The translations under genes were made by a program, and so were the position numbers. DNA of 64,000 nt, taken from contig JACZZP010000017.1 in the NCBI GenBank assembly GCA_015183035.1, positions 372,001 through 436,000 on the forward strand, given 5' to 3'. Origin of the DNA: Meloidogyne chitwoodi (Eukaryota > Nematoda > Chromadorea > Rhabditida > Meloidogynidae). A model generated the notes under the pieces. That model had not been told where the DNA came from, did not search any database, and saw only the letters and a list, made by a program, of their open reading frames with translations. Positions 5,153 to 61,600 of the stretch are shown in pieces. The stretch's first letter is position 1. Every line of letters starts with the position of its first letter.

Positions 5153-8100
5153 TCAATTGAGGTTTGCAATTGCCTTATTTGCAACATTAATATTCATATT
5201 TGTTGTTAATTTACAACTAGAATTTTTAATTTGCCATTTTATCAGGGGAAGGGCAACACCTCCTAAATTTTCCACTGCATAATTGATTTCCTTAAAAAAT
5301 TAATTTTTTTTTAAATTTTTTCAGAATTTTTTGAACATTTTTAACTAAAATTTATTTATTTTTTAAGTACTTACAATATCTATGTCTCCTTCATCAAAGT
5401 CAAATTCATGACTTATTTCGAAATTTTCCTGTGCTGGTACATTTATATTTATTATTTTTTTATTTTTATCATTTTCTTCATTTTTTTGTTCACTTTCTTT
5501 TTCTATTTCTTTTTTTTCTGATTTTTTTATTTCTTTTTCTTCTGATTTTTTTTCTGATTTTTTTCCTTTTTTATTAATTTCTGTTTTATCAGAATTTTTA
5601 TTTTTTTCAATTTCAACATCAGGTTTTAACTAAATATAAATTAGGTAATTATAAATCAGAAATTTAATAAAATACTGATTTTTTTATAAATTCTGATTTT
5701 TCTAAAATAAATTCTGATTTTTAATAAAATAATTCTGATTTTTAAAAAATAAATTCTGATTAAATTATTTTTATTTTTAAACAGAATTTTATTCAATTCT
5801 GTTTTTAATAATTTCTGATTTATATTTTACAATAATTTTTGTATTTTAGTACCTTTTCCTTTTTAATTTCTTTTCGTTCTGATTCCTTTTTTGTATTTTT
5901 CTCCTTTTCTGCTTCTTTTATTTTTTCTTCACTTTTTTCTTCTTCTGCTTCTTTCATTTTTTCTTCACTTTTTTCTTCTTCATTCTCCCCAATAATTTCA
6001 CTTTTTAAATTATTACGGACAGTTTCACGTGAATGTTTCTCTTCTTTTCGAGTATTTTGTCTTTCATTATGGTTAATATTCATTACTATTTTTGTTTTTT
6101 TCCTCTTATTATTCATTCTTGGAAAATGTTCATAATGTTCATTTTCAAAATGTCCATACTCATTTTGGTCAAACCCAAAATTTCCTTTATTAACAGATTG
6201 CTGCCATTGAGGAGAACCATAATTAATATTATGGTGTAAATAAAAAGAAGATTGAGGTGATTGTTGTTGTTGGGGAGGATAAGGATATTGCTGTCCATTA
6301 TAAAAAGAAGCCTGAAAGTGTTGTCCTCTCGGGTAATATTGTTGTGAAGGATTATAATGACCAAAATGAGTAGTTGAATCAAAATTATGTTCATCCTCTT
6401 CATTTTCAAACCACGAAGTATGTGGTTTGTCATGTCTTTTCTCTTTAAGAATTGCCAAACGTGCGGGGGAAGTTTTTACTGAAGAAGAAAAAAAATATTT
6501 TTTTTTCTTCCAAAAAATTGGAAAAAAAAAAATTAATTTTTTTTTGTAAAATAGACGAAAAAAATTTCAAATTTTTTTATTTTAAATTTTACCCCTTATA
6601 GTACTAGTATATATTTCTCTCTTTTGTCGCAGCTGTTGAGTGTCATTTGCCTCAACACCATGTTTTGCACAAGCTCCTTTCCCAACATCCAAAATTCTAG
6701 GTACAATCTTTTGACAATTAACTAAAAATTAAAAAAAATATTAATTTTGACAAAATGGCAAATTTTCCTCTTTTGGACATTTTTAAAGATTTTAGGTTTT
6801 GGGTGTTTTGAATTTTTTTTTAAATTTTAAAATATTTTTAACAAATTTTAAGGCATTTTATAAAGATATTTAAGTGTGTTAATTATAAAAATACCATTTT
6901 TTGAGAGAAGCCATTTTGACAATGAAAGTTGTTTATTCTCTTCCAAAGGAAAAATAAAATCAACATATTTTAGACTTTCAAATAATTTTTCTGTTTTTTT
7001 AGTTGACAGGAAATTTGAAGAATTATCCAGTTGGATTGCTAAAAAAATAAAAAAAAAATATATTTTTTAAATTATTTACCAATAATTCTTCTTGGTGTTT
7101 TTTTAATGTTTGAAGCTTTCTCTGAATGCAATGATAAAAGAAAATCGCGTACAAATTCTGCCAATTTGTCAAATTCTTCAAAACCTTCTGTCAAATCCAA
7201 AACAAAACCATCATATATGCGAGCATTTTTCTGAAAAAATTTTTATTGGTTATCTTTTATCATTTTGATATGAAATTTAACAATATTTACTAAGACATTT
7301 TGTCATTGGACATTTTGTCATTGGACATTTTGTCATAATTTTATACATACATAAATTGTTAAATGATTATTTAATTCTACCTGTTTTTTTGTAATAGTCT
7401 CGATAAGCTCAATCCTTGTCGAAGACCCACGTTTTTTGCCCAAATTTGAATTTTTAATATTTGCATTTTTTAATTTATAAAATTCTGCTAATTTGTATTT
7501 AATCAACTTTGTAGAGGAATAAATCTAAAAATAAATTTTATTAAATTATTTATACAGGTTAAATGCTTTGGACATTTTGTCTTTTTGACATTTTGTCTTT
7601 TTGACATTTTGTCTTTTTGACATTTTGTCTTTTTGACATTTTGTCTTTTTGACATTTTGTCTTTTTGACATTTTGTCTTTTTGACATTTTGTCTTTTTGA
7701 CATTTTGTCTTTTTGACATTTTGTCTTTTTGACATTTTGTCTTTTTGACATTTTGTCTTTTTGACATTTTGTCTTTTGGACATTTTGTCCAATCCGTATG
7801 TTATATTTCTATTCAAATATTTAAAAAATTATAAAAAAATACTTTGATATCTGCTTTTTTAAATTTCTCAATTTCATCAGCCTTCAAATGACCACTATAA
7901 TCAATAATATATGAACATTCTTTAACTGCTGAATTAATCGTTTCAGAAAGAAGTGAAGAATAATTCTCTAAGGTACAAACAACTTTTGGAGTAGATGTTC
8001 TAGGGCAAAAATCTGTCAAAAAATTTAAATTAAAAAAGTTTTTTTTAATTTTTAATTTAAGTTGAACGTGGCCGTTTCAGAGTCTAAAACGTTCAATTTA

Positions 8101-23721: not shown

Positions 23722-26700
23722 TCATTTTCCTGAGGTTCCATTTCTTTCATTATCTTCAACTTTAATTTCTCCTTCTTCTTCTTCAATATTTAATTCTTCA
23801 ATATTTAATTCCTCTAAATTATTTACTTTTTCTTCATCTTCTCCTAATTGTTCTTTTAATTCTCCATATGAAACATTATAATAATCTTTAGAAGCATCCA
23901 ATTTTAAATAAGAATATTCATCGCTAACATTTTCCAATTGAAGAGCTAATTGTTGTCTTATAGCAGCAAAGTCTAAACGCATTCTTGGATCTGCTGTCCA
24001 ACAGGCACACATTATTTTATAACTTTAATAAATTCATTAAATTTTAATTTAAGGGAACATAACATATGTTCCTTCCACACCAGGCATGGACGAAACACCA
24101 AAAATTTTTCCAAAGAAACGAAACGAAACAAAAAAAATTAGAAAATTGTTTCGTCACGAAACGAAACATTTTAAATTTATGTTTCGTCACGAAACGAAAC
24201 GAAACGGAAAAAAAGTAACGAAACTAACGAAACGTTTCGTCCATATCTGTTCCACACCATGAGTAGTGTGAAGGGAACATAAAACTATGTTCCTTCCACA
24301 CCATGAGTAGTGTGAAGGGAACATAAAACTATGTTCCTTCCACACCATGAGTAGTGTGAAGGGAACATAAAACTATGTTCCTTCCACTCTATGTGTAGTG
24401 TGAAGGGAACATAAAACTATGTTCCTTCCACTCTATGTGTAGTGTGAAGGGAACATAAAACTATGTTCCTTCCACTCTATGTGTAGTGTGAAGGGAACAT
24501 AAAAATATTTTTTTTAAATTACTATTCATCTGGACAATTGTCAGGTTGAGTTATACGACGGCCTGATTCAAGAAAGGCAAGCATATCATCAGGTTGAATC
24601 CCAGGGTACGGAGTACCTCCTAACGTAATTATTTCAAACATTAATATTCCAAAAGACCAACTAATGAAAAAAATGTAAATAATATTATTTGTTTTTTTGC
24701 ACAAAAATGGCCAACATTGGTTTTGGCACCAAAATGACCCATTTAATTTTTTTTTAATTTAGGTTAAAATAATATTAAAATAAATTTAAAAAAAGTTCCA
24801 AACATACACATCTGAGCTAGTTGTAAATTCATAATGTCGTATAGCCTCAGGAGACATCCTAAAAATATTTTTTTTAATAAAAAAATTTTGCTTAACCATT
24901 TAATAGGAAGTCGTCCACCTCTACCTTTATAATTAGAACTATCAGCATAAATAAACCGACAAAGACCAAAATCCCCAATTTTTGCATGTGTTTTGTCATG
25001 AACAAGAATATTTCTAGCAGCTACATCTCGGTGAACAAAACCCTTTTGAGTTAAATATTCCTAAAAAAATTATTTTATTTTTACTTTTTTTAATTATAAT
25101 ATTTAAAGAGGACGACCATAAAAAAATTAAATAATTAATTTCTTTTTATTTTCACTATTTTTTTGTGGGAAGAAGGCGTTCACTAGTGTAATTCAAGTGC
25201 TTATAACTTTTCCAATTTTGCAAATAAACTTTTAAAATTTTGCTTAATTATTTGTCATTGTTTTAGCTTCTTCCTCTAAAAATTTTATAATTTTTTGTTA
25301 AGTTCAAAAAAGTTATGGTCAAAAAATTGAGGAAAATGGACAAAATTTTGAAAAATTGTAACATTTTTGGCCATAATTCTGCTACTAATTAACCTAAAAT
25401 TAAGAAATTTTTATAAATGTTGGATAACACTATTAGGGACATTAGTACAAAATTTCACGGCTCTAAGTTCACGCTTGTCTGTTTTATAAGCACTCGAACA
25501 GAAGTTACTTTACCGTAACCTGCCCTTGTTAAGAAAATAAAAATAAATAAATTAATTAATTTCAACAAATAAATTAATTAAAAAATTAATTAAAAAATTA
25601 ATAAAAAATCTCACCAATCCATAACTAATTTGAACAGAAAACATTAACAATTGTTTTACTGTCATAATCATTGAATGATCAAATTCTGCTGTACAATCAG
25701 GGTCAGAATAATAAATTCCAGCATCATCTAATTCTAACATATATTTACATCGAATACGTAAAAAGTGAAGTAAATCGCTTTAAATTTAAATTTTATTTTT
25801 TTATAAATTATTTTTATTTACCCGTCACTGCAATATTCGACAACAAGACAATAAGGCTCAGATTGCATTACACAGGCTAACATATTCACTAATCTCTCGT
25901 GATAGCCCAAAGTCTTCATTAATGCTATTTCTCGTAAAAATTCGCTTTTAGATAAATCATCCGCATATTCTAAGCAAAAAAATAAAATTTTAGTTTGTAG
26001 GAAGGGCAGTTACTTCTATAAGAGGTTGACTCAGTTAAAAAAGGTTTACTCGAGAAAAAATAAACTTTAAATAATTATTATTGATAAAATTGGATAGAGG
26101 AGAAAATTATCTACAAAATAAAAAATAAATAAAAATTTTTCAGCATTTGACCAAAAAGTTGTGAACAAAAAACTATAAAATTCGTAAAAAATGCGTAATT
26201 TTTGGAGGTTTTTCGACCAGAACATTTTTAAAAAAGAACCGAAAATTCTGATTTTAATATATTTTGTAGCAAATTTAATTCTCTATTAATTAGATTAAAT
26301 TTATTTAAAACGATTTATTTTTGATAAAATTAAAGAGGTCGGAAGTAAACTGGTTTATGACTCAAAGATCCTCCACCAAAAAAATTAAATAAAAATACCT
26401 GGCAACATTTTAACTGCAACAAGTGCATTTTCTGCTCTTAAAAGACCTTAAAAATTGTAAAATTAAAAAAAAAAAATTTTATACCTACCAATACTTAAAT
26501 TATTCCCAGCTGCCTTTAATCGACTTATACCCACCAATTTACCCAAATAAACTGCACCAAATGCACCTGCACCAAGTTTTTTATCTTCATAAATTATTAA
26601 ATTTCTTCTTTCCAATTCCCAAGGGTCTTCTCTATATTAAAAAATTTAATTTATAATTTTATTATATTTAAGTGTCCTTATAACGAGAGTTTCCTCTCTA

Positions 26701-40621: not shown

Positions 40622-43600
40622 TTAATCAATTCTTCTTAAAATTCTCAATAATCTTCTCTTTTTTCTCAAAAAATTATTATTATTATTTGATTTCCAATAA
40701 TTACAAGGCCTAACATTTCTTCCATCAATAGCATTAGCCATTAAATCAATTTTGTGTTCATTTAATTCAATTTCTCCTAAACAACCAATAAAATTTTGAT
40801 TAAACATTCCAGCCGTCATAAAATTTAAATCTGGGACTCCACCAATAAATATATTTCCTTCAACATTTAACATTGCTAATATTCCACTACTTCTACCAAA
40901 TATTAATTTTTGGTTGTTATCTATTTGTAATGTTCCATTCCTTCCTTGACGTGTGGCACGTATCTTTTTTTTTAATTTTAAGTTAATTTTAATTTTTTTA
41001 GAAATTTTTTTTGAACAAAATTTTAAAAAGGAAAGTAGTAAATACCTAGAATATAACCTGGGAATGCAGGAAATTTGATAGGGGAAGAGAAAATACAGGG
41101 AAAGTATGCGGAAAAATAAAAAGATTTATATATAGGGGAAAGGATTAAAATCTGTCCAGACATTTCGTCGACAGAAATTGCACGACATTTCGTCACAACG
41201 GCAAAAAACAAGTGGCTCGGGTAAACGAAATGTAGTTTTTTTGCCGTAGTGGCGAAATGTCGTGCAATTTTGTTGGACGATATGTAAAGATTCCATTAAA
41301 GTTTCAATTAAAAAAGCGATGAAAATAAAATAAAATGCTGTTTGGTTTAGGTACACACCCCATTTATTCGCAAGAAAATATTTTATTGTTAATGTCAATT
41401 TTGGGTATAATTTGTATAAATTTGGGTGTGTACCGAAACTAGACAAGTTTTAGTGTTTTTGGTCGAATTTCTTAGAGAAGAATTTCTGAGTTTTTTGAAT
41501 TATAAAAAAATTCTAACCAAATGAGTCTTTCCATCATTTATCGGTTTTTCACTAATTAATTGTGCTGCTCCTCCCCCCAATTCATAAGTAAAAGACAGAT
41601 AACCACCCAACAATCCAATAGATATAAAATCCTCTCCAAATTGTTCTGTTACTTGTTTTTCGTCAATAGAAGGATATTGGCCTTGCCAAAATATTAAACC
41701 ATAACGTGCTTTTGTTCGCAATTTAAATTGAATAATTTCTTTCAAATCGCTAACCATATGGGGAAATTCTTCAGAGGAGAATACCTTAAATTTTAAATAA
41801 TTTGTATTATTATTATATATTTTTTTTATTTTACCACAAATGCAGAACCATCAAAACCTGCTGCATATTCTAGTGGTTGAACTTTAAATAAATTATTTAA
41901 AAATTATTAATTACCGTATTTTCAAAATAAAAGCCCTTAAATTAAAGCCTTCCTCTAAAATAAAACCCCCGATTGGAGAATTGTTGAAAAATAAAGTTCC
42001 GGGGGCTCTATTATTGGAAATACGGTAGACGGGAATAATGAAAGTTTTTCTGCAGTAATATAGGAAGGATATTTTCACTTAAGTGAAGGTTAAGTCACTT
42101 GACTTATGTCACTATAATCAGGCATATCTAGACTATTTTTTAAATTCTTTCACTACTTACATTCTTCACATAATTTCCCTGCCCAGAAGTCGCGGCAATT
42201 ACAAATTACATGTGTTGAATTTATTTCTTCACAATTTCCGTGTATTCCACATGTTTGTTGGTTACATAATCCTTTAAATATTCTTTGTTCTATTAACATT
42301 TCTGGTATTTGTTGATGTTTTATTGTTAAAATTGGATTTTTTTCTGTTGAGTAAGTTAAGGTTGGTGGTATTTTGTCAGTTGACGTTTCAATATTTGACA
42401 TTTTGTAAACTGGCGTTTCTACACTTGACGTTTCATCATTGGACATTTTGTCTGTTGACATTTTGTCACTGGTCGTTTTGTCTGTTGACGTTTCAGTATT
42501 TGACGATAACAATAAAATTGATGGAACAGGCATTAATGTAGTCTCTTCCATCTCTTCACTATTTTCTTCTTCACTTGTTACTGTAGGAGAATTAGTAGTG
42601 AATTCTTCACTTTCTTGTTGGATAGTATTATAAATTGTTTCTGTTGTTTGTTCTTCTTTAATAACCACAGGAAGAGGATCAGGTGCAATTGAATCAAGCA
42701 TTAGACCGGGATATGACTAAAAATTAAGGAAAAATTGAAAAATTTTTTTAAAAAATACTGTAGACAAATTAAAAATTATTTGTGTGAAAATAAACAAATA
42801 AAATGACATACAGGTTCAACAGAATTGTCTTCATCAACTAATTCATTTTTATAGTACTTTTCTTCTTCATTTCCACCAATTTGTTCATCTCGATGTTCAA
42901 CAATACTTTTTTCTTCAAGTAGAGGATCTTCTGTAACATTTGTCACTTTTATTGAAATAAATGTTGGAGAAATTGTTGTTATTAGCTCTTGGGAAAATTT
43001 CAATTATAAAAAATATTTTATTTTTTATTTTACCTTCACTATTTTGTTCTTCTTCTATTCCTCCATTTTCATCATATTTTAATTTACAATTATCCAAATT
43101 AATAGCAATTGTGTCCTTTTTATTGCTTAAATGTTTCAATCCCAAAGACTGTCCATTAACAATTAATTCACTCAGACAACCGGAAAAGGGCATTGCTTTG
43201 TCTATTAATACACTATTTTTGTTTTCTCTGCTTCTCTGTTGTTGTGGTAATAAATTTCCTAGCAAAAGTAGAATTTCTGAAGATTGTCCATCGGTATATT
43301 TCAAAGAAGGTAATTTCCATGTTCCTTTAGGTTTTCCATCTAAAAGTAATCCAATTTCGTCTTTTCCCAATTTTTCCAGGCGTATTAACATTGATTTTTT
43401 TGCTTTCAATTTTTTGACTAATGTAGGTCTTTTTTGAATTGGAGAAGAAGATTTTTGAGTTTCTGAAAAATAATTTTTTTAAAGTATTATTTTATTTCTT
43501 TTATTTCTTCCTTAGTTATACCAAGCTTCTAGTCATCCCTTCTCATTTATAGGGAGGTTGGGATAAGTGAGAGATTGGAATAAGTAAAAATTATTCCCTT

Positions 43601-46600
43601 TGAAATAGTGCTGGAATAAGTCAGAGTTAATTTTGTATATGTACTCGGAAAAGAATCTGACCATTTTGAATATTTACCATTTTGAGGTGACATAGTAACA
43701 GCTGCAAGTATTTGAGTATCTTTTTCCCTCATCAATATAGCCAACAATTGTTCTTCATTAAAGAATGTTTGAGTTGGATTTAAACGAAATTCTACCTTAA
43801 AAATTATTGAGTAAGTATAGTAATTATTAATTTACTAAAAATCCATTATTTTCACTCATTTCCCCCTCATCCTTTGTTGAATGCAGTGAAAATGCCAAAA
43901 GTGAATTTTGCCCATTAAATTCAATATTATTCGTTTCCTCATCAAATTGTTCATTTTTAAGTTCACATTGTTGTCCTAGCCATCCTGGAGGGCATAAACA
44001 TGTTGCTCTTCCATCCTCCCAAAGGCAAACACCTCTATAACACCAACGACGACCATCTGCTGGACAAACACCATCCATTGAACTTAAAGTGCAAAAACGA
44101 CCGGTAAATCCATGTTGGCATTGACACTGAAGGTAATTTAGATAAAAAGAAAAAGGCAAGATATACATTGAAAATTAGGTCATGGTGTGAGAGGAACATA
44201 AATGTAGGGCGAAAGGAACATTTAAGAGAATGTTTATAAATTACAAAATAATGAACGCCTAGAGCCATAAAAATTTTACTGGATATATTTTATAGCGTTA
44301 AATACCTCTTACATAATTTTCAAAATTTTTAGTTCAATATTTTTTGAGTTAATTAGGAAATTTGCATTTTTGAATAGTTGGACATTTTTGTGCCACAATT
44401 CTAAAACTAAACATCTAAAAATTCTCAGATTTTAAAAGGAGTTGGGTAACATTATTAGATATCTGAACAACATTTATCAGCTTTAAATGATTTTTTAACC
44501 ATTTTACAAGCACTGGCGCTAACTCGTTCCTTACGCACTACCTTCATGTTCCTTTCAGCCAATGATCATTTTTCTTTTGGGTTGAAATTTAACATATATA
44601 AATAATTTTCTACCTGAAACACACCCCATCTATCAAGAAAACATCGTCCTCCATTTTTGCAAGGCTCTCGGGAACATTCATTAACTCGTTGTTCCAAACT
44701 TGTTTTCTGTTCTTCTAAAAGACTCTCTCCTTGATTTTTATTTTGATTTTTTAAATCAACATCTTTTCCATTTAATTTTAGTCTGCCAATTGACCCCACA
44801 AAAGGTAAAAATGTTTTTTGAATATTTCTAGTTCTATAAGAGTCTACACCTCCGATAAAAATGCGTGAAGAACCATAAATTTCAGTTGATGGTTTTTCAA
44901 GTCTTCCGGGACTACTGTAGAAAATCTCATTTGGTGCTTCAGAGTTTACGTGAAGTGATGCTATATTTAAGAAAATTAATAAGGAAATTTGACCATTTCG
45001 AGCTTTGGGTATTTTGACCATTGGCAATTTGTCTTTATGAGTGTTGAAAAATTGGGTACTTTAATTTTTCGAATTTTTAAATATTTTTAGTTATCTTTTA
45101 AGTCTTAAAATAATCAAAAAAATAAATATTTGCATACCTCTCCCTCTAGGATTATTAATTAAACGTAGAATTGACCATTTATTCTTTTTTAATTTTGAAT
45201 TGCTTCTAACAATTTCTAAAATTTATTTATTTAAAAAAAAAATAAATTTACTTACTCTCTTTATTTTGATAAATATTTTTAAAAGAATATTGAGGATATC
45301 CATTAATTAATTCTAATCTGTGCATTATTGAAGGAGTACCAATAAAAGAAGGGGAAGCGGAGTTTGTTGCGAAGACAATAACTCCATTAGAAGAACGTGG
45401 AAGTACATAAAATTAAAAAAATAAATTTAAAAATATTTAATTTTTTTGGAACATGTGTTGTTTAGGTACACACCCCATTTATTCGCAAGAATTTTACTCT
45501 CAAGAAATTGACTTGGATAAAATATTTTCTTGCGAATAAATGGGGTGTGTACCTGTAAAAAATTTATTTTGTTTTTTACTGTTTAGGTACCCACTTATTC
45601 GCAAGAAACTATTTTATCTTCAAGTCAATTTTTGAGAGTAAAATTCTTGCGAATAAATGGGGTGTGTACCTAAACATACAAATTCCAATTTTTTAATACT
45701 TGTAATTCCAAGTCAATATAATCAAGTGTTTGATTTCTTTCTGAAGTCAATTCCAACGTCTCAGTTCCTAAAAATTCAATTTGTAGAGATGGAGGTGTTT
45801 CAAAATGTTCGCTTTCTTTAACAGTCGTTTCTGCAGCTTGAACTTCAAGTTGTTCATTTCTTCCTTTATTTTCTGCTGGTAATAAAGGATCCGGAATAGT
45901 TAAAATATTCTCTTGAAAAGAAGGCTTCAAAGTACTTTCTGAAAAATGAAATAATTTTAATTTTGGTTAATATCGATGAGTGAATGTCCGCAAAAATTTT
46001 GCGGACACTGACCTTTAGCAATAAAATTTTTTTTTAATTAAATTAAATAAAAAGGAGGCTTTCATATATTACTCTCATAAGTTTCTAATTTGATTTAATT
46101 TTTTTTATTTTAAATTAATTAATTATAATTCCCCAAATATTTACTAAAAATATTTTTAAAAAATACTTACACATCAGACCAAAAAAAAATTTTTTTAATT
46201 AGCACAACAATAAAAAAACAAAAAAAATTTTTTTTAATAAATTTATTTTTTAAAAACACAAAAATAAAAGGAAGTGAATATTTTCTTTTTCACTGGGGTG
46301 GCAGTGCAAAAGTAGAAGAAAGGCAAAAGTTTTTAATTTTAAATTATTAAAAAAATTAAAATTAAAAATGGCAAAAAGAAAAATATTATTTTATAAATTT
46401 TTAAGATCAGAATAATTTAAAAAAAATTAAAATTTTTGGGTATTTTTTAAATTCCATTAAATATTTTTATACACGAAGGCAGTTATTAAAAAAATAAAAG
46501 GCTTAAATAAAATAATAAAAATTCTGATCTTTATAAATGAACAGACTGTGAAAAATATATGTACACATTTTCGAATCAGATAAGTATAAGAAACAGAATC

Positions 46601-49600
46601 AGAATATTTTTGATTAATCTGAATTAAAAATCAGAACTTCTGATTAATCAGAAATTAAAAATCAGAATTTAAAAATCAGAACTTCTGATTAATCAGAAAT
46701 TAAAAATCAGAATTCAAAAATCAGAATTTCTTATTAATTATAATTAAATCAGAATTAAAAATCAGAACTTCTGATTAACATAATTTGTATTGAAAAATTA
46801 AATAATCAGAATTTTTTAAAATTGAGCGCTAATATATAAATGGCAATAATTATATAAAATAGTTAAAAAAATAATTTTATAAAAATATAATTATGACCAA
46901 AACCAAGAACCAAAAGTGCTATGATGTCGTCCAGAAATAGGTGGTAGATCATTTCTAATTTGATAATGATGATAACGTTTAATTAAATTATTATTATTGT
47001 TTTTATGGGAACGTTCTGTTCTGTGATATCTAAAAAAATAATTTTTAATTAATTTATATTCTTCAATATTTTTTAAATTAAATTAAAAAAAACTCCCTAA
47101 CCTTTCAGCTCTTCGCCTTAAATTTGCTCCTCTAACCTTTTTACGCGACTCTTTTTCTTCTCCTTTTGTTGCAATTAAATATTTAGAACCAATACCAATT
47201 TTTTTAATTAAAGCACGTCTTCTTGGATGTTTTAGTCTACGAAGACGTCGACGTGATTGATAAATTGGACGTTCAAGTTCAATCTTGAAAAAAGGAAATA
47301 AATTTAATAAATTATTTAAAATATTTATTTTAAGCTCAGATTTTTCATATGTCGAAAGTCGAACCCGGATTCGAACTTTCACATTTTATATTTTACTTTT
47401 TCCAAAATTTAAATTTTTTAGAAAATATAACTTTTTAAAATTAATATTATAATTTAAAAAAAGTTAAATTTTACTAATAAAACAATTTCTAAGAGTATTA
47501 TTGTAAAAAGGGGAAAGAGAGAAAGTTAACCTACTCTGCGCTCTCTGCCCTTTTCTAACACATACTGTGCTTTTATTTATTTTTTAAATTTAATTTTTGG
47601 GTAATCTTTGACTAAACTAAATATAATTTACCGTATTTACTCTAATAGAATGACACCTCCATTTGAATGACACCTCTATTTGAGTGACACAATTTGAGGG
47701 CATCGAAAAATAAAATGACACCCTCTATTTGAATGACACCTCTAATTGAATGACACTTTTGGGTTACCGTGAAATAAATTGCCTATGAATATACTTTGCC
47801 TAATTTTTTTTTCTTTTCATTATTTTTAAGTTTTAGATGGATAATTTTGATGAAAATATTGACGTATTGGGTAAATAACCAGTTGGATCCCTACCTGTCC
47901 GCAAAGAGAATTCGCTCTTTTCTTTCCTTCTCTTGTATTTTTGGCGTTAGGAGAAGTGCACGCTTATTTTTCCTTCTCCTCTATTATAATATGCCTTTTG
48001 GCATTTGGAAAGAAATTGATAAAATAATTAATTAATAATAAAGTGAAAATATAATTATTTTAAAAGTGACCAAAGATTAATAATCAAATAACATAAATTT
48101 GGGACAACATTCTCAAATATATTTCTAAAAGATCAGGTGAACCTGTTAAGGGATTATAATGAAGGGATAAAAACCAGTAAAAGGACAAATATTTAGGTAA
48201 TTCAGTTTTTGTATATATCTCATATGACGGATAATTCTGAATCTTAATCACTATTATTAATTAATTTTAATTATTTTATCCATTTCTTTCCAAATGCCAA
48301 AAGGCATATTATAATATAATAGAGGAGAAGGAAAAATAAGCGTGCACTTCTCCTAACGCCAAAAATGCAAGAGAAGGAAAGAAAAGAGCGAATTCTCTTT
48401 GCGGACAAGTAGGGATCCAACTGGTTATTTACCGACGTATTGAATTTGACAGACGAGGAGGGACCATCCGAAAAGAAACCAAGACAATCATTCACAATTG
48501 AGAAAATATATTAGTGATTCTTCGGTTGTTTAATTAATTAAAAATTTGAATAAATTAATGAAAAATTGGTCATTGAAAAATACAATGACACCCTCTATTT
48601 CAATGACACCTCTAATTGAATGACAAAATTTGAGGGTGTCGAAAAATAGAATGACTGTCATTCTATTAGAGTAAATACGGTATTTTTATTTTCAAAATTC
48701 CTCTAAAATAAATAATTAATTTAAAAAAAAAATTTGTAGATTTTATCCGGCAAAACAAGAAAAATACCCATTTTTAAAAAAATAATGATTAACCGGATAA
48801 ATAAATTAAATTTAAAATTAATTAACTTACAACTTCAGTATTAAATAATTCATCTTTTCTTTCTTCTTTTTTATTAATATTATTTACATCATTATTATCA
48901 TTATCAGCTAAAGTATATTCTGTCCCTTTAGGTGGTTTTTTATTATTTTTAATTATTTTTTTAGGCTTAAATAAATGTTTTCTTTTTCGTTTCTCTGCTT
49001 CAGTTTCTTCATCATTTTCGACGTTTAAAAGTGCTGAAGTTTCTAATATTCCTTCGGAAGTATGTGCTCTACAACGATATTTGCCTGTATTTTCAGAAGA
49101 TATTGAAGTAAACATTAAACGATTTCCTGAGACCTTTAAAAAATCAGAATTAAAAACAGAATTTAAAAATCAGAATTTAAAAAATACAAGAATTTAAAAA
49201 AATCAAAATTAAAAACAGAATTTAAAAATCAGAATTAAAAAAATCAGTATTTAAAAAATCAGAATTTAAAAAAAAAATTAAAAAAAATCAAAATTCTGAT
49301 CTTTAAAGAGATAAAAATCAGAATTTCCAGAACGGAATAAAAATCAGAATTTTTAAAATAATATTTTTAAAAATCAGAATTCTGATTTTAGACGTGTAAA
49401 ATAAGAATTAAAATCAGAATTAAAAAACCTATTTTTTAAAAAAAAAAGTGTTTGCTTACCTGAGCATTTTCAGGTAATTCATCAGAATCATCCTTTAAAA
49501 ATTCAATTTTTGCATTGGGATCACCAATAACCACACAGTCTAGCCATGCTCTAGAGCCTGTAGTTACTGATTCATCAGATACATTTAAAAGAACTTTTTT

Positions 49601-52600: not shown

Positions 52601-55600
52601 CTCACAACGCACTTCTAAAGGCTCTCCAGCTATTAATTTGAGGCGTGAAGGAGCTGGTTTACCCGGTGGAAGAGTTATTATTGGTCCGTCGTCAGGCGGT
52701 GAAATGTTTGCCTTAATTAATAGTGAGTAGAGATATTAAAAACTAAAATTCTGATAAAATCAGAATTTTATTAAAAATCAGAATTTAATTAAAAATCAAA
52801 ATTTAATTAAAAATCAGAATTTAATTAAAAATCAGAATTTTTTAATAAAATTCTCGTTTAAAAAATCAAAATTCTGATTTTTAGAAAATAAGAGATACTT
52901 TTTTAAATCTTCTGATATTTTATTCAAACAATTAAACACTCTTAATTCAATTATCTCTACCTTTCCATCATCAGAAGCCTCTCCCAAAGGATTTGTGGCT
53001 GTACAGGTATACATTCCATCATGCAATTCTTTACTTGCATTAGTAATTTCCAATACTCCATCACCCAAATCAACAACTCCTTCAGGTAATTGACCTCCTT
53101 CATCATTTGAAGGGCCAGTCCAAGAAATTGTTGGGTAAGGATTTCCAGTTACATAACATTTAAATTGATGATTTTCGCCTGTTTTACCATTCCAAACTTT
53201 TGGTTCAACTCTAGCGGTTGGAGGCTCTTCTTCTTAAAAATTTTTTTTAATTTTTTTGGATCAAATGTCAATTTATTTTTTTAATTATCTTACGGTCAGT
53301 AATAGAAAGATGTACTGGGGCAGCCACTCCTTTTCCAAATTCATTAGTAGCAGAACAAACATAATCGCCAATGGTTGACTCATCCGCTGCGTGAATAAGA
53401 ATATCTTGGTCATCCACACTTACATCTGTTGGAAGAGCACCATTGGCAGAACCAAAGCCTATAGGAAATTAAAAAAAAAAATTTATGGAAAATTAAATTT
53501 GAGTTCTGAGTCTTGGAAAAATAAAATATTTAATTCAAAAAAAACTTTTACCCCAAAATATTTGTGCAGGTGTATCACTGTTTGGTTCACAATGGAAACG
53601 AGCGGGTTCTCCACGAGGAACTGTTTGATGTGGTGGAGTTGCAACAGGTGCAGGCGGTTTTCCAGGTGGTTTTTGTACATCCACAACTGTTGGTGGATTG
53701 ACAATGATTCGTGCTAGTTCAGAAACCTGTAATTTTGATTCTTATAACTTTAACTCTCCAATCTTTCCAAAATTTGAAATTTACAAAAATTTAGACAAAA
53801 AGTCCACAATCCCCTCCTTTTTTTATTTTTTTCCATAAAAACACCTGTGGATGAGCACCAGGAACATGTGGGAAATGTGCAGTGCATTCATAATCTCCTT
53901 CATGTTCTTTATATGTTTTAGCAATGTACAAATTTCCATGTCCATCATCTCTAGAATCAGATGGCAATGGACGTCCTCCAGGCTTGCTAAAACGAAGTTG
54001 GGCTTCTGAATCACCAGGTACCCAACAACGAATGCGTGAAGGTTCTCCTTCTGGGACGTGTTGTTCAGGTGGATCAATTAGTGGTTTTTTGGCTAAAATA
54101 GAGAATAAGAGTAAAAAATGTTAAATTGTACATGTAGTACTGTAATGGATGTGAATTTTGGTTAATATTTATAGCTGGATTGTTAACTTTCTTTACTTTT
54201 TATCTTCACACTACTATGTTCTCTTCACACTACTAAGGGATGTTCTCTACATACTACTAAGTATGTTCTTTTCACACTACTAAGAGATGTTCTCTTCACA
54301 CTACTAAGCGATGATCTCTTCACACTACAAAAAGTGTTCTTTGGCTTACGATGGTCTTCTAAAAATTCAAATAAAAATTCTACTCACGTTCATTCACATC
54401 AAGCTCTACAGGAGGTGATTTAAGCGTCTTTCCACTCTCTGGATGATAGTAAGAACAAATATATTGGCCGTCGTGTCCAGCAGCCACAGATTGGAATATT
54501 AAATGTCCTCCTCTATCTTCAGCTCCATTGGGTAGAGAGCCACCATTTAGAGGAGACCAAGTAAGTTGAGCATTTGGATCACCAGGTACCCAACAACGGA
54601 AACGTGCAGGTTGACCAATATTTGCGGTTATTCTTGGAGGATCAACTAATGGAGGTTGTGGTGCTTCAGGAGGCCTTCGTTGACGAACTTCTAACTAAAA
54701 AGATGGGAAAATGTCCAAAATACCAAAAATAGACAAAATGTCCAAAATACAAAAATAGACAAAATGTCCAAAATACAAAAATAGACAAAATGTCCAAAAT
54801 ACCAAAAATGAACAAAATGTTCAACTTTTAATAAAGAAAATATCAAAAAGTATCCTACCCTAACAGGTGTAGAATCAACAGGACGTTCTCCATGAGGGTC
54901 ATCATTTGGATCATAAGCAACACAAATATAATCACCCGCATGGTGCATTTCTGCCCTTTGAACGTTTAATTGAGCCCCATTATGAATTTGTTCAACACCG
55001 CTAGGTAAGCTATGTTGTTGGGCAGATTTCCAGCTCAAAACGGCATCTGGAAATCCTGGAACCCAGCAACGATAAGGCCTTGGAATTTGTTGACCTTCAT
55101 CGACAACTTGATACGGTGGTTCTACCTAAAATTTAAAAAACAAAAATTCAACAATTCTCAAAAATTAACTCAAAAGGACCCAAAAGATCACATAAAATTA
55201 TCAAAGACAAAAGATCAACAAAAAACTAAAAAATTAAAAAGATCAACACAGTAAATACCCAACTGACCAACACTAATAATTAAATGTCGATCTTTTGGAA
55301 AACTAAAATAAATTAATTACCAAGGGTTGGAATGGCTTTTTAGTTCGTATATTAAGCACAACAGGTGTAGAGTCAATTGGAGTTAATCCTTGAGGGTCTC
55401 TGGAAGGGTCATAAGCAGCACAAATGTAATGGCCTTGATTTGGGTATTCCACACTTGGGAAGTTGAGTAAACTTGAAAAAACAAAAAGAAATTTATGGAA
55501 AATGAGAAAAAAATTGTTTGAAATTTTTTTAAAAAATCCAAAAATTTACCCTTCTCTTTGCTCGGATCCATGAGGCAATGCCCCTCCCTGTCCTGGACGC

Positions 55601-58600
55601 CAAGTTAAAACAGCATCAGGTACTTCAGGCACCCAACAACGAAAACGTGCAGGATTGCCTAATTCAACTGTTTGTTCTGGGGGTTCTACCAAAACACGCA
55701 TTGTTGCTAAAAATTAATTTTATAATTTTTAAAAAGAATTTTTATTAAATAAATTAATAGTAGTGTAGAGAGCACGGTAACTTTGTGCTCTCTACCCTAC
55801 TATTAAAAAAAAAAAATTTTTTTTTCTTACGTTTTCTAATTTCCAATCTGCCAGGATCAGATGCTGTAGTACCCAATTGATGAGTAACAGAACATATATA
55901 ATCCCCCGCATGAATTTGTTGAGCATTTTGTACAATTATTTGATTTCCCCTTCGTTGCCAGCCAAAAGGTAAAGGACCCCCTAAACGTTGATAATGCCAT
56001 TCAACTTCACAGTCAGCATAGCCAGGGGTTAAACAAGTAAACACTGCTTGTTGTCCTTCATCCACAAGTTGATAGGGGGGAGTAACGATTGGCTTAGGTA
56101 AAGATATTTGTGCTGGGGCAGGGGGGATGTGTACTGGGGGAGGAGGTAAATGAGCTGCTGCTGCTGGAAAAAATAAAATAATTGAAAATTTTTTTTTTAT
56201 TTTTTTATATTTATTAGACCTTTAGGAAGCTTTTTAAATTAATTTTAAAAATTAGTAAAAAATTGGGGTAAAAAATAATTATTTTAAAACAATTACTTAT
56301 TTTACACCTAGTAGTTAATTAAAAAATTATAAATAATTTATAATTTTTTTTCAGAGGTTATTAAAATAATTTTAAATAATTTTCCTACTTTTTTTAATGT
56401 TATTTTTGTATTTTTAAATTTTTAGAATTTTTAGTTTTTTTTAATAATTTTTAAATGACTACCGTATACTAATTAATTTGTTTGCGGGGAATTTAGGCTT
56501 ATTTAATCAAAACTTTTTTTTTTCGATTTATTTATTAATTAATGAGTTTAAAAAATAATTTTTCCTACTTTATACAATGTTATTTTTAATTTTTTAATAA
56601 TTTTAAAAATAATTAATTAATTTGTTTAGGGAGAATTAGGTTTATTTAATTTAAATTAATTTATTTTCTTCCTTAAAAAAATTATTTTTTATTTTATTTA
56701 AATAATTACCAATATTTAAACTAGCTTCATCAGTAGATATATCTCCCTTTAATCTTCCTGTGCATCTATATTGTCCAACATCTCCATAATGTACTTGATC
56801 TATTATTAATTGATGACCAATTTGTTGAGTTTTTGAAGGTAATTCTGACAGTCCTATTTTACTCCATTTTATATCTACTAATTCTGGCTTTAATAAAATT
56901 ATTTTAAAATTATTAAAATAATTTTTAAAAATTATTTACTTTTGCTGCACTAACAATTTTACATGTCCATTTTGCCCTGCTACCTTCGTGAATACTTAGA
57001 TGCTTTGGGTGAAGAATTTCAACGCGTAAAGGTACTGTAAAATGGTAAAAATTATTTTTGAATAGAAATAGTGTTAATTATTATAAAATTTAAGGTAAAT
57101 AAATTTTTGACCGAAATGTCTTCTGACCGAAATGAAATTTGACCAAAATGTCTTTTTAACGAAATGAAATTATAACCAAAAATAACTAAAAAATTCTATT
57201 TCTGAAATAAACGTAGTATTTAACTTGCAAAATAGGCCAAAGGCTATGAAAATATATATCCACCATCACCAATTTTGACCAAGCGAGCAATTGAAGCAAG
57301 GCGAAAGAAGAAAAAAATAATAAAAAAAATAAAATTTATTTATTTAAATTTTTAAAATAAACAAATAAAGCTTTTAATCAAGTAAATAATAAATTGGGAG
57401 ATTATAATATTTTAAAATAAATTTAAAATTAAAAATAATAGGCGCTTGCTTCTCTTCCTTATTTTTAATTTTTTTAAAATTCGAGAAGCAAACACAAAAA
57501 AAAATATTTTTAAAAAATAATATAACAATGAGAGAATAGAAGAAAAGATTTATTTCTATTGAAAAAAATTTTTTTATTTTAATTAATTAATTTAAAAAAT
57601 AACAAAAAAGGCAGCAAAAAGAGTAATTATTTTTAAAGCATGTAAGCTGAAAAGCAAAGAAAAAAGCAAGGCACAGAAAATAAAATAATAAAAAAAAAGA
57701 AGGCTTTTAAAAATAAATTTAAATTTCGACATAAAATTAAGAAAAAATATTGACTAATTTAATCGAAATTTAAAAAATTAAAAATTTTTTTCTAACAAAG
57801 CCTTCCCTTATAAACTTAAAGAAAAACTAATATAACAAAAAAACTTTAAAAAAAATTAAAAAAAGCAGTTATTTTGAGCAATTATTTTTTGCCTAATTTT
57901 TTTAAAAAATGTCCTTTTAATTAGAATAATTTTTTTTCAATTTTTTAGAAAAAAGCGAAGACGTCTAACAGGTCTTTGATGGTCTCCACCCCCTTGAAAA
58001 CGGCTACGAATTCTATAACGACGTCCATGTGGACGAGGATTACCCCAACCACCACCACCTCCTCTATTATTATTAAAACTTCCTCCTCCTCTACGGTGGT
58101 TTTGTTGCCCTTCACGAAAAGAAGAAGAAGAAAGAGGAGAAGACAGCAAAAATTTCTGACCTTCAGGTGATGGTACAAAATCAACTTCTGAGGGGCGATG
58201 TCTTCCAATTGGTTCACATTCACGTCCACCACCTATTTGACTGCGAGTATAGCCTGGGGCACATCTGTGGAAGAAAAAAATTTAAAAAAATTAAAAAAAG
58301 ACCCACTCATCACAACGACCACCACCATAACCAGGAGGACAATTTTTGCATTGTACTTGTCCACGTTCATCTAAGAAACATTCTCTATCACCTCTGAAAA
58401 TTTAAAAAATAGGTAAATATTTTTTAAATTTTTTTAAAAGAATTTACGGGCAGGGACAAAGAGTGCAATCAAAAGGTGTTCCTCGTGTAGCTTCACCATA
58501 ATAGCCTTTTTTACAAACTTCACAATGGAAACCTTCAGTATTGTGTTCACATTGCTACAAAAATAAAGTTAAAATTATAAAGGATTTTGTTCCCTCCACA

Positions 58601-61600
58601 CTACCACATAGTGTGGAAGGAACATATATATTGTTCCCTCCACACTACTTTTAGGGTGAAATGAACATGGCTTTTGTTCCCTCCACACTACCACAAAGGA
58701 TGAAAGTAACTTATCCTTTGTTCCCTCCACACTACAACATAGGGTGGGAGGAACAAAGATATTGTTCCCTCCACACTACTCTTAGGGTGGAGGGAACATA
58801 ATTAGAAAATTTTTTCCAAAATTTGGTCATTTTTTTCTCCAAAAAATACAAAATAACATACAATACATCTCCCATAAGAATCACAACCCCTAGGTGAGTG
58901 ATTATTGCATTGACAAGATGGGCGTGCCGGTTGTTGTACAGGCAAGCAATCATTTGGAGTACCTCGGCGAGCGTCTCCAGTGAAACCTTGGGAAGATTTG
59001 ATGAAATTTTTTTATTTTTTGAATATTAAAAAATTTTTAAAAAATTTTCCAACCTGGTTTGCAACGTTCACAACGGTCTCCCTTAATCAAAATATATTTT
59101 AAATTAAATTAAAAATAATTAAATTAACTTCAGTATTATGTAAACATCCAATACATGCACCATATTCTTTATCACATTGGCTTGCATGACTATTACATTC
59201 ACAACGTTCACAAATACCCATATAAGGACCTCCTTGTGCACGGAAATAATTTGGGGCACAAATCTAAAAATTTTTTAAAAAATTTTTTAAAAATTTTTTA
59301 AAAATTTTCCTTTCCCCTTTTTTCGAAAATTTAAATAAATAAAGATTATTAAACTAGAAAATCCTCTTTCCAAAAATAAAAATATAATTTTTAAATTTCA
59401 ATTTTTGCGTCATTAAATTCCTTTCTTAAAAATTAAAAAAAAAGTAATCACATAAATTACTTTTTAAAATTAATTTTTTTAAATAACGGATTTAGTCACC
59501 ACCCACTTATATATACATTCACTCCTTTAACATTCACTTTTGTAAATATTTTTATTTAAAAAATTCAAAATGTCAAAAAGACAAAATGTCAAAAATTTCA
59601 AAATGTCAAATAATTAGACAAAATGCCAAAGAGGACAAAATTCAATGAAAATAAAATAAAATAAACTAATAAAAACATAAATCCTCTTATATATTAAACA
59701 TTTTAAAATTTAATATCTTACTTAATATACGTCAAACAAAGCAACGCAAGAAAACAAACTATAAGGGGATAGATAGAAGGGGCGTATAAGGAAGAATTAA
59801 AAAAAAAATTATTTATTTTATTTTAATTTTTAGTTTGAGAGATTCCCTTGGCTTTTTTAATTAATATTTTAAAAATGAAAAAATTAAAAAAAAATTTTTT
59901 TTTAATTTTTTCAGAAAAGTTTAAATTACTAATTTAATTTAAAAATCGTTTTTACCCTTTAATTTTTAAATTTTTTATTTAATATATAATTTTATATTTA
60001 AAATTAAATAAGAGGATTATGCCATTTTTTAAATATTTTAAACTTGAAAAAAAATTTTTTCTCTTCTTTAAAAATACTTGTAAAGCTTAAAATTTATTTT
60101 TAGAAAATAAATTTTAATTTTTTAAAAATTAGCCAATTTTTAAGCTTTTTTTTTTTTGATTTTTATTTATTCACTTTTTTCAACTGTAAATAACTACTAT
60201 CTTGAATTTTTCTCTCTTATCAGTTTTCTCAATGTCTCCCTGTTTAAAAAATTTTTTCTCTTTGGTATTATGTTCATTGTTATTTTTCTTTTTTTAATTT
60301 TTGGCATTTTGTCTTTTTGGCGTTTTATAATTTTGACATTTTGTCTAATGACATTTTGTCCAAAAATATTATTTAACTATAAAATTAAAGGAATTTAAGT
60401 TAAAAATAATAAAAATGTTTAAATCCTTTTTTAAATTTATATAAAGTCTGAAAGTGTGTTTATAATATGTTCTGAGAGAAACCACTTAACTGAAATTATT
60501 AGAAAATTCATAAATATTAATTTTATAAAAAAATTTTTTTTTTTGCTTATTTGATAAAAAAATGTCTTTAAATCTTTTTTTTTTAAATTAAGAAGATTGT
60601 ATAAGTATATATTTAATTTATAAAAAAATAATTTGATTGCGTTATCAAATATTTTATTTTTTTTATTTTTATTAAATTCCGGATTATTTAAAATATATTT
60701 AATTTATTTTATTTATATCAGTATTATCCATATAAAGTCCTCTTTTTCAACTTTTAATTTTTTTTAATATTTAAATATTTCCTTAAACCTTCTAAAAGCT
60801 CCTTTAAATTTATCTTTGAATAATTAAAATTGGGATAACTTAGAGATTACTGTAGAATCTTTATATTATCACACTTCTTAGGATAAGATCCAAGAGATTG
60901 GGAAATGTCGGAATAAGTCTGAATTCTTTAATCTCTATCTATCCCATCTAAAATAAAAAATCTCTATCTTATCCCAGTTGTTCCGAATTGGTATAACTAA
61001 GAGAGAAATGGTTAGAAAGGAAGGTCTTTCTTAAAATAATAAGATTAGTTACCTCACAAGAAGTTCCCTGATAGCCAGGAGGGCATTGACATTGTTCCAC
61101 ATCCAAAGCCAATTCCCCAGTTCCATAAGCATCAGCAATGTCCATTTGAACAGAAAGAAGTGAAGAAGTAGCACAATCACTTGTACAACTTATTTTAATT
61201 AAAACAACTTCTAAATCAGCTAAAGCCATTAGAAAATGTTCACGAGTTATGGGTTGACCATCTTGAGTACGTCGCCAACCTGCTTCTGTTAAGGGAACCT
61301 AAAAAATTTATAAAAAAATCAAAAGTTAACCAAAAAAATTAAAATTTTGTAAAAAGGTCCTTGATAGTATTATCTAACAGTTGTAAAATTTTTAAAATTT
61401 TTGGACAATTTTTAACATAAATATGTTCAAAAATGTCAAACTTTGAACACTTTTTTGGGGTTTTTTTATCACAAATTGAGTTATATTCGACCAAAAATTC
61501 TGAAATTTTTAGGGTTATTAAATAACACTATTAGGAATATCTATACAAAATTTCACAATTATATCTTTTCATAAGGCTAAATTATGAATTTTTGAGTAAA

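What the first reader, a model, noticed from the sequence alone, without database searches (positions are those of the whole stretch)
42371..42500. An intronic minisatellite word has become a protein-coding pentapeptide array in perlecan
The 11-bp core GACAAAATGTC occurs as a pure 16-bp-period array in a CHID1-like intron (7571-7789), as scattered copies in other introns (54720-54810, 59567-59640, 60300-60362), and inside a perlecan exon. In the exon the spacing is 15 bp, which keeps frame, so it encodes DKMS-type units in a Ser/Thr-rich linker between laminin-G modules. A one-base change in period would separate non-coding junk from a coding array.
Basis: partly seen in the sequence, partly recalled or inferred. 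Interest (0 to 1): 0.75.

Follow-up and report, generated by a model that had tools for sequence, protein, structure and literature searches.

The report
Repeat-derived pentapeptide array in nematode perlecan
A short DNA word scattered through this nematode genome also makes up a five-amino-acid repeat in an exon of the matrix protein perlecan; relatives share that repeat with different unit numbers, so it looks like old repeat DNA put to use as flexible protein linker.

Summary
GACAAAATGTC forms a pure 16-bp array at 7571-7789, and a nine-unit, 15-bp (pentapeptide) array lies at 42366-42500 (- strand) in an open 187-aa perlecan exon before an EGF-like stretch and a laminin-G module. The word is a genome-wide dispersed minisatellite core: 1282 exact copies against 14 for the reversed control. 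Codon choice in the exon (all five position-4 Thr codons are the rare ACG) fits descent from that word better than random recoding. The array is conserved: Meloidogyne hapla (8 units by my count), two unnamed sequences (12 each) and a partial one have it; Acrobeloides nanus has a Thr-rich linker there without it. A 15-bp array lies at 7294-7334 in short frames; 2 of 13 fifteen-bp loci lie in frames of 150 aa or more, against 1 of 17 sixteen-bp loci. The 16-bp array is itself open in all three frames of its strand. A second probable coding array (DILS units, other strand) lies on contig C7. Exact-core pairs cluster at 23-29 bp (458) and 15-16 bp (53), with 5 at 18-22. Whether relatives' genomes carry the word is untested.

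The parts
42366..42500 (-). nine-unit 15-bp array encoding pentapeptides (DKMS / DETS type)
   Evidence: TRF rows within 42370-42493
42153..42716 (-). perlecan exon (open 187 aa; predicted acceptor just above 42716, predicted GTAAGT donor near the low end): linker + array + EGF-like stretch
   Evidence: homologues P0001-P0004
42915..43478 (-). open frame that I read as the end of the second laminin-G module and start of the linker
   Evidence: similar stretch stands upstream of the array in M. hapla P0003 (by eye); no Pfam hit
40622..41850 (-). laminin-G module after the array, in two frames
   Evidence: Pfam PF00054/PF02210 in both frames
43827..44174 (-). EGF-like modules upstream
   Evidence: Pfam EGF_Teneurin above cut-off, other EGF models below
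7294..7336 (-). 15-bp array of the same word in short open frames (longest 37 aa): counter-example to the period rule
54708..54824 (+). 26-bp array of the same word within the span of the perlecan gene
60303..60360 (-). loose cluster of the word within the perlecan span, one exact pair 15 bp apart

Best explanation
GACAAAATGTC is the core of a dispersed minisatellite family in this root-knot-nematode-like genome. Before M. hapla and this species split, a short array with a 15-bp period came to lie inside an already existing Thr-rich linker exon of perlecan. The core has no stop in any of its six frames and the 15-bp unit keeps frame. So the array was translated as D-K-M-S-x units and tolerated in a flexible linker, where whole units have since been gained and lost (8, 9 and 12 units seen). 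The encoded stretch most likely acts as an extended spacer rich in hydroxyl residues, perhaps O-glycosylated, before the last EGF/laminin-G modules. Shown: the array, its frame, its conservation and unit-number change in relatives, the genome-wide family, and the codon bias towards the DNA word. Inferred: the direction (DNA family into exon), the timing, and the spacer role.
For: Genome: 1282 exact copies vs 14 for the reversed control; 566 exact pairs 15-45 bp apart vs 0. Exon: lag-5 residue periodicity P 2.5e-4; relatives P0001, P0002, P0004 at the test floor 5e-5; M. hapla 0.049. Codons: ACG for all 5 position-4 Thr vs 5 of 85 Thr codons in 1480 other codons of the gene; GAC 4 of 5 vs 14 of 75; TCA/TCC 6 of 6 vs 39 of 111. 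Synonymous recoding, background from 10 of the 17 frames used: 76 core matches observed vs mean 62.8, sd 2.7, maximum 72 in 50000 trials; grouped recoding P 0.005. Outgroup: Acrobeloides nanus perlecan (P0005) has a linker at the same place without 5-residue periodicity (P 0.73). Precedent in the same genome: a second array of the word inside a 337-aa open frame at C7:1854517-1854587, read on the other strand as DILS units, with the same codon signal (no recoding of 50000 reaches it; grouped P 0.017).
Against: Units are not independent, so the small P values are optimistic. Given the residues D-K-M-S, the exact 11-mer is not very unlikely by itself (about 1 in 10, my arithmetic from the codon counts). 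Only 3 of 9 units match the core exactly or with one mismatch. The relatives' DNA was not seen. M. hapla shows only weak lag-5 periodicity. The composite search returned one nematode perlecan only, so the outgroup is a single species. Transcript inclusion was not tested.
Confidence: 0.66

Rival explanations
1. Protein-first: a Ser/Thr/Asp/Lys pentapeptide arose by slippage inside the linker exon under selection for a hydroxyl-rich spacer, and its likeness to the dispersed word is a coincidence of codon use.
For: A Thr-rich linker exists without the array in Acrobeloides. Only two exact cores lie in the exon. Other Thr-rich pentapeptide stretches in this genome (TTTCP on C12, C2) use near-miss words in another frame.
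Against: ACG 5 of 5 where the gene uses it 5 of 85 times; no synonymous recoding of 50000 reaches the observed core likeness, 0.5% when copies are recoded together.
Confidence: 0.24
2. Reverse direction: the exon array, or another coding array, was the source, and the word spread from there through the genome.
For: The exon array is shared with M. hapla and so is probably old.
Against: Most exact pairs are 23-29 bp apart (458, against 566 at 15-45 bp), with spacers unlike the exon's. Exon units are more degenerate than the 16-bp array.
Confidence: 0.04
3. One reading: non-coding arrays are 16 bp and a shift to 15 bp made one array coding.
Against: 15-bp spacing also at 7294-7334 and 60335-60360 in short frames; 11 of 13 fifteen-bp loci in frames under 150 aa; the 16-bp array has three open frames.
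Confidence: 0.06

Closest known systems
Coding minisatellites / VNTR-type protein repeats (such as mucin repeats, or the Meloidogyne incognita MAP-1 repeats; both recalled, from no call)
   Same: In-frame tandem repeat with unit number varying between relatives, in an extracellular protein.
   Different: Here the unit also exists as a dispersed DNA word with other periods and spacers.
Perlecan / UNC-52; Acrobeloides nanus basement membrane proteoglycan P0005
   Same: Laminin-B, Ig, EGF and laminin-G modules; a Thr-rich linker before the last EGF and laminin-G modules.
   Different: The linker here carries the pentapeptide array; P0005's does not.
17-bp CENP-B-box-like motif of Meloidogyne satellite DNAs (PMC3694981: outline, section 13 and passages; PMC9673304: passages)
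   Same: A short motif conserved inside otherwise divergent tandem repeats of M. chitwoodi and relatives.
   Different: 17 bp inside satellite monomers; ours is 11 bp in units mostly of 15-29 bp. The box letters were not in the text seen, so no sequence comparison was made.
19-bp box of CenH3-associated repeats in M. incognita (Despot-Slade et al. 2021; not held, known from passages and references in PMC9673304 and PMC12643312 and from recall)
   Same: Divergent short tandem repeats sharing one box.
   Different: Sequence not seen; CenH3 binding not testable here.
M. hapla 16-nt chromosome-end repeat CCCAAGGTTTAAAAGG (PMC12643312, passages)
   Same: 16-bp period in a root-knot nematode.
   Different: Different sequence.

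Membership tests
Nematode perlecan (UNC-52) | Laminin-B, Ig and laminin-G/EGF modules in successive frames of one strand | tested here: met
   Pfam hits to Laminin_B, Ig, EGF and Laminin_G on the - strand between 61.9 and 40.6 kb, in 7 of the 13 window frames scanned for this gene, one of them below cut-off only; best hit of the composite is a nematode basement membrane proteoglycan, 55% identity over 25% of the query. One continuous transcript not shown
Coding minisatellite | Tandem units in frame in an exon | tested here: met
   nine 15-bp units in a 187-aa open exon
Coding minisatellite | Unit number differs between relatives by whole units | tested here: met
   9, 8, 12, 12 units in window, P0003, P0001, P0002 (counted by eye; P0004 partial)
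Coding minisatellite | Length polymorphism within a population | not testable with these tools
   no population data
GACAAAATGTC dispersed minisatellite family of this genome | Likeness to the core beyond what the encoded residues require | tested here: met
   recoding test P 2e-5 (floor), grouped 0.005
GACAAAATGTC dispersed minisatellite family of this genome | Spacing within the family's preferred ranges | tested here: met
   15 bp; exact pairs at 15 and 16 bp: 11 and 42; 18-22: 5; 23-29: 458
CENP-B-box-like or 19-bp box repeats of Meloidogyne | Sequence match to the box | not tested
   box sequences not in the text seen; the 19-bp paper is not held

The most novel reading that the evidence does not exclude
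GACAAAATGTC is a protein-binding box with helical phasing. Exact cores sit 15-16 or 23-29 bp apart and almost never 18-22, and the base after the core is A or C in all 70 sampled spacers between exact cores. The box keeps seeding new arrays with differing spacers, and because it has no stop in any of its six frames it enters exons as ready-made linker peptide on either strand (DKMS in perlecan, DILS on C7). The same DNA element would then serve the chromosome and supply protein repeats.
Probability: 0.12. Interest if true: 0.75.

Novelty: new member of a known kind. Interest (0 to 1): 0.42.

Why it matters
It is a traceable case of repeat DNA that probably became, and stayed, protein-coding in a conserved matrix gene, with relatives of the repeat still present in the same gene and genome. 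It can be dated and tested by sequencing one exon in a few Meloidogyne species. The genome-wide word, with its preferred spacings, is a separate and perhaps more interesting lead for anyone studying short conserved boxes in the divergent repeats of these nematodes.

Tried and rejected
Period rule (15 coding, 16 non-coding): rejected. Telomere repeat: the published M. hapla 16-mer has another sequence. Published report of the word: three forms searched in the PMC library; 18 papers listed, none with a title on nematode repeats, none opened. Viral-contig search: 8 contigs, G+C 0.33-0.37; all eight hold at least one longer hairpin GCGACAAAATGTCGC (1 to 3 copies), so I read them as unrelated; no chance expectation was computed, and several share flanks. 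A protein search of the genome with the 50-aa array stretch found only itself. Near-miss 15-bp sites: five short stretches were fetched, four of them on such sites. The C12 site lies in a 271-aa frame as TTTCP units, the C2 site in a 189-aa frame as TTTKPPTTTCP; the C6 sites lie in frames up to 110 aa, one reading VDKMSVDEMS; the C9 834-kb site in frames up to 62 aa. Core invariance: an early idea, weakened since 1-mismatch copies number 3421 against 811 in the control (subtraction). Spacers are not unrelated everywhere: several 26-bp arrays on different contigs share a loose spacer such as ACTAAGGGAAAATTG. The rule that A or C follows the core holds between exact cores in the sample; beside a mismatched neighbour T occurs (two rows), and also at the array end at 7294. 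The L030 frame of 165 aa counted among 16-bp loci looks like an intron tail running into an exon. CHID1 label: not confirmed. Of nine hits only P0005 is a perlecan; the rest are eyes shut, crumbs and Notch proteins.

Full report
Setting. The window lies in a 47.48-Mb genome of 30 contigs. The only named close relative of the exon is a M. hapla protein. Size and contig number fit Meloidogyne chitwoodi, but that name is recalled and was not confirmed by any search.

Observation. The exon array is 135 bp long, 42366-42500 on the - strand, nine units: [45 protein letters not shown]; 18 of its 45 residues are Ser or Thr. The frame is open for 187 aa and continues into an EGF-like stretch. The splice sites are plausible: the exon starts after TTTTTAG, and a GTAAGT lies at the end. 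Pfam finds laminin-G in the next two long frames downstream, EGF upstream, and Ig and laminin-B further up. The array exon itself has no Pfam hit.

Is it coding and how old? The exon finds P0001 and P0002 (52 and 54% identity over 97%). With a three-sequence alignment it also finds P0003 (M. hapla) and P0004 (partial). All four have the array. By my count from the sequences and alignment the units number 8 in M. hapla, 9 here, and 12 in P0001 and in P0002. The differences are multiples of five residues, as unit gain and loss in a coding array would give. Residue identity at lag 5 exceeds shuffles in the window (P 2.5e-4), P0001, P0002 and P0004 (floor 5e-5), and weakly in M. hapla (0.049). The matching linker of Acrobeloides nanus perlecan (P0005, the only perlecan among nine hits of a composite query) has Thr, Glu and Pro but no such period (0.73). 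So a linker without the array exists in a more distant nematode, and the array was in place before this species and M. hapla separated, or arose twice.

Does the array descend from the DNA word? In the gene outside the array (1480 codons from 17 trimmed frames) Thr is ACG in 5 of 85 cases. At position 4 of the array units it is ACG in 5 of 5, one transition away from the ATG of the word. Asp is GAC in 4 of 5 against 14 of 75. Ser at position 5 is TCA or TCC in 6 of 6 against 39 of 111. When the same residues are recoded at random with codon usage from 10 of those 17 frames (half a count added per codon), likeness to the word averages 62.8 matches (sd 2.7) against 76 observed; none of 50000 trials reached it. 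If equal residues at equal unit positions are recoded together, as a guard against copying, P is 0.005. I take this as good but not final evidence of a DNA origin.

The family in the genome. Exact copies: 1282 vs 14 for the reversed control. One-mismatch copies: 3421 vs 811 by subtraction. Exact pairs 15-45 bp apart: 566 vs 0. In separate searches 458 pairs lie at 23-29 bp, 5 at 18-22 bp, and 11 and 42 at 15 and 16 bp (zero-mismatch rows). Among 70 distinct spacers from 81 typed rows of the 100 listed, the base after the core is A (47) or C (23); T occurs beside mismatched copies. Some 26-bp spacers resemble each other across contigs. The core can form a weak 4-bp hairpin with an AAA loop as single-stranded DNA.

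Test of the period rule. For distinct loci with a pair of at most one mismatch, the longest open frame across the pair was measured. At 15 bp, 2 of 13 are at least 150 aa (perlecan 187; C7 337). At 16 bp, 1 of 17 is (165 aa, probably an intron tail plus exon). Those 17 stand for the 30 loci fetched of 66 pairs, and two of the 17 lie 386 bp apart. Random places in the same loci give 5.1%. Fisher P is 0.56, and the 15-bp excess over background has P 0.14. Period thus does not decide coding.

A second coding case. At C7:1854517-1854587 the word lies in a 337-aa open frame rich in Glu and Lys, in the opposite direction, reading [30 protein letters not shown]. The codon test gives the floor P 2e-5, grouped 0.017. 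Pfam finds no family, and its conservation was not tested. Near-miss words also sit in frames of 271 aa (C12, TTTCP units) and 189 aa (C2) in another reading frame; whether they belong to the same family is open.

Mechanism. The core reads without a stop in all six frames (visible from the sequence), and a 15-bp unit keeps frame. So an array with a suitable 4-bp spacer can persist in a tolerant, already Thr-rich linker. Unit gain and loss then follows as in other coding minisatellites. The spacer and O-glycan role is inference from composition alone.

Literature. The word was not found in a paper with a nematode-repeat title in the PMC library (listing only). Two papers on Meloidogyne satellites were read in part (PMC3694981: outline, one section, passages; PMC9673304: passages); they describe a 17-bp box and the second cites a 19-bp CenH3-associated box, whose letters I could not obtain. 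No paper held the terms minisatellite, exon, pentapeptide, tandem repeat and intron together.

Verdict. A real, coding, conserved array with a probable origin in a dispersed minisatellite: a neat and testable example of a known kind. The proposed frame-shift story is not supported. The genome-wide word with its preferred spacings is the part most worth following.

Noticed in passing
G000:C7:1854517-1854587 (L014): Second array of the word inside a 337-aa open frame, read as DILS units on the other strand.
   Followed up: partly
G000:C12:517553-517593 (L078) and G000:C2:661418-661443 (L079): Near-miss words (GACAACATGTC) in 271-aa and 189-aa open frames, read in another frame as TTTCP-type pentapeptides.
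   Followed up: partly
window 24250-24508, 54214-54340, 58583-58800: A second dispersed word, GTTCC(N)T(N)CACACTAC, in arrays of 44 and 24 bp (26 matches in the window with up to 2 mismatches, 0.09 expected); in the 24-kb array it alternates between strands.
   Followed up: partly
window 47870-48433: Long inverted repeat (arms 123 nt, 98% complementary, 318 nt apart) within the span of the perlecan gene; both arms encode a similar short open frame. Possibly a foldback element.
   Followed up: partly
L027 (G000:C12:289082): By eye the array seems to fill a short intron of a helicase-like gene; arrays in L019, L021 and L030 also seem to lie just before intron acceptors.
   Followed up: no
L070-L077 (viral contigs): Pairs of the same 11-bp word in eight viral contigs, each with one to three longer GCGACAAAATGTCGC hairpins; cause unknown, chance expectation not computed.
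   Followed up: partly
window, many places: Many arrays that contain AATCAGAATT or its complement, with varied periods: another dispersed word.
   Followed up: no
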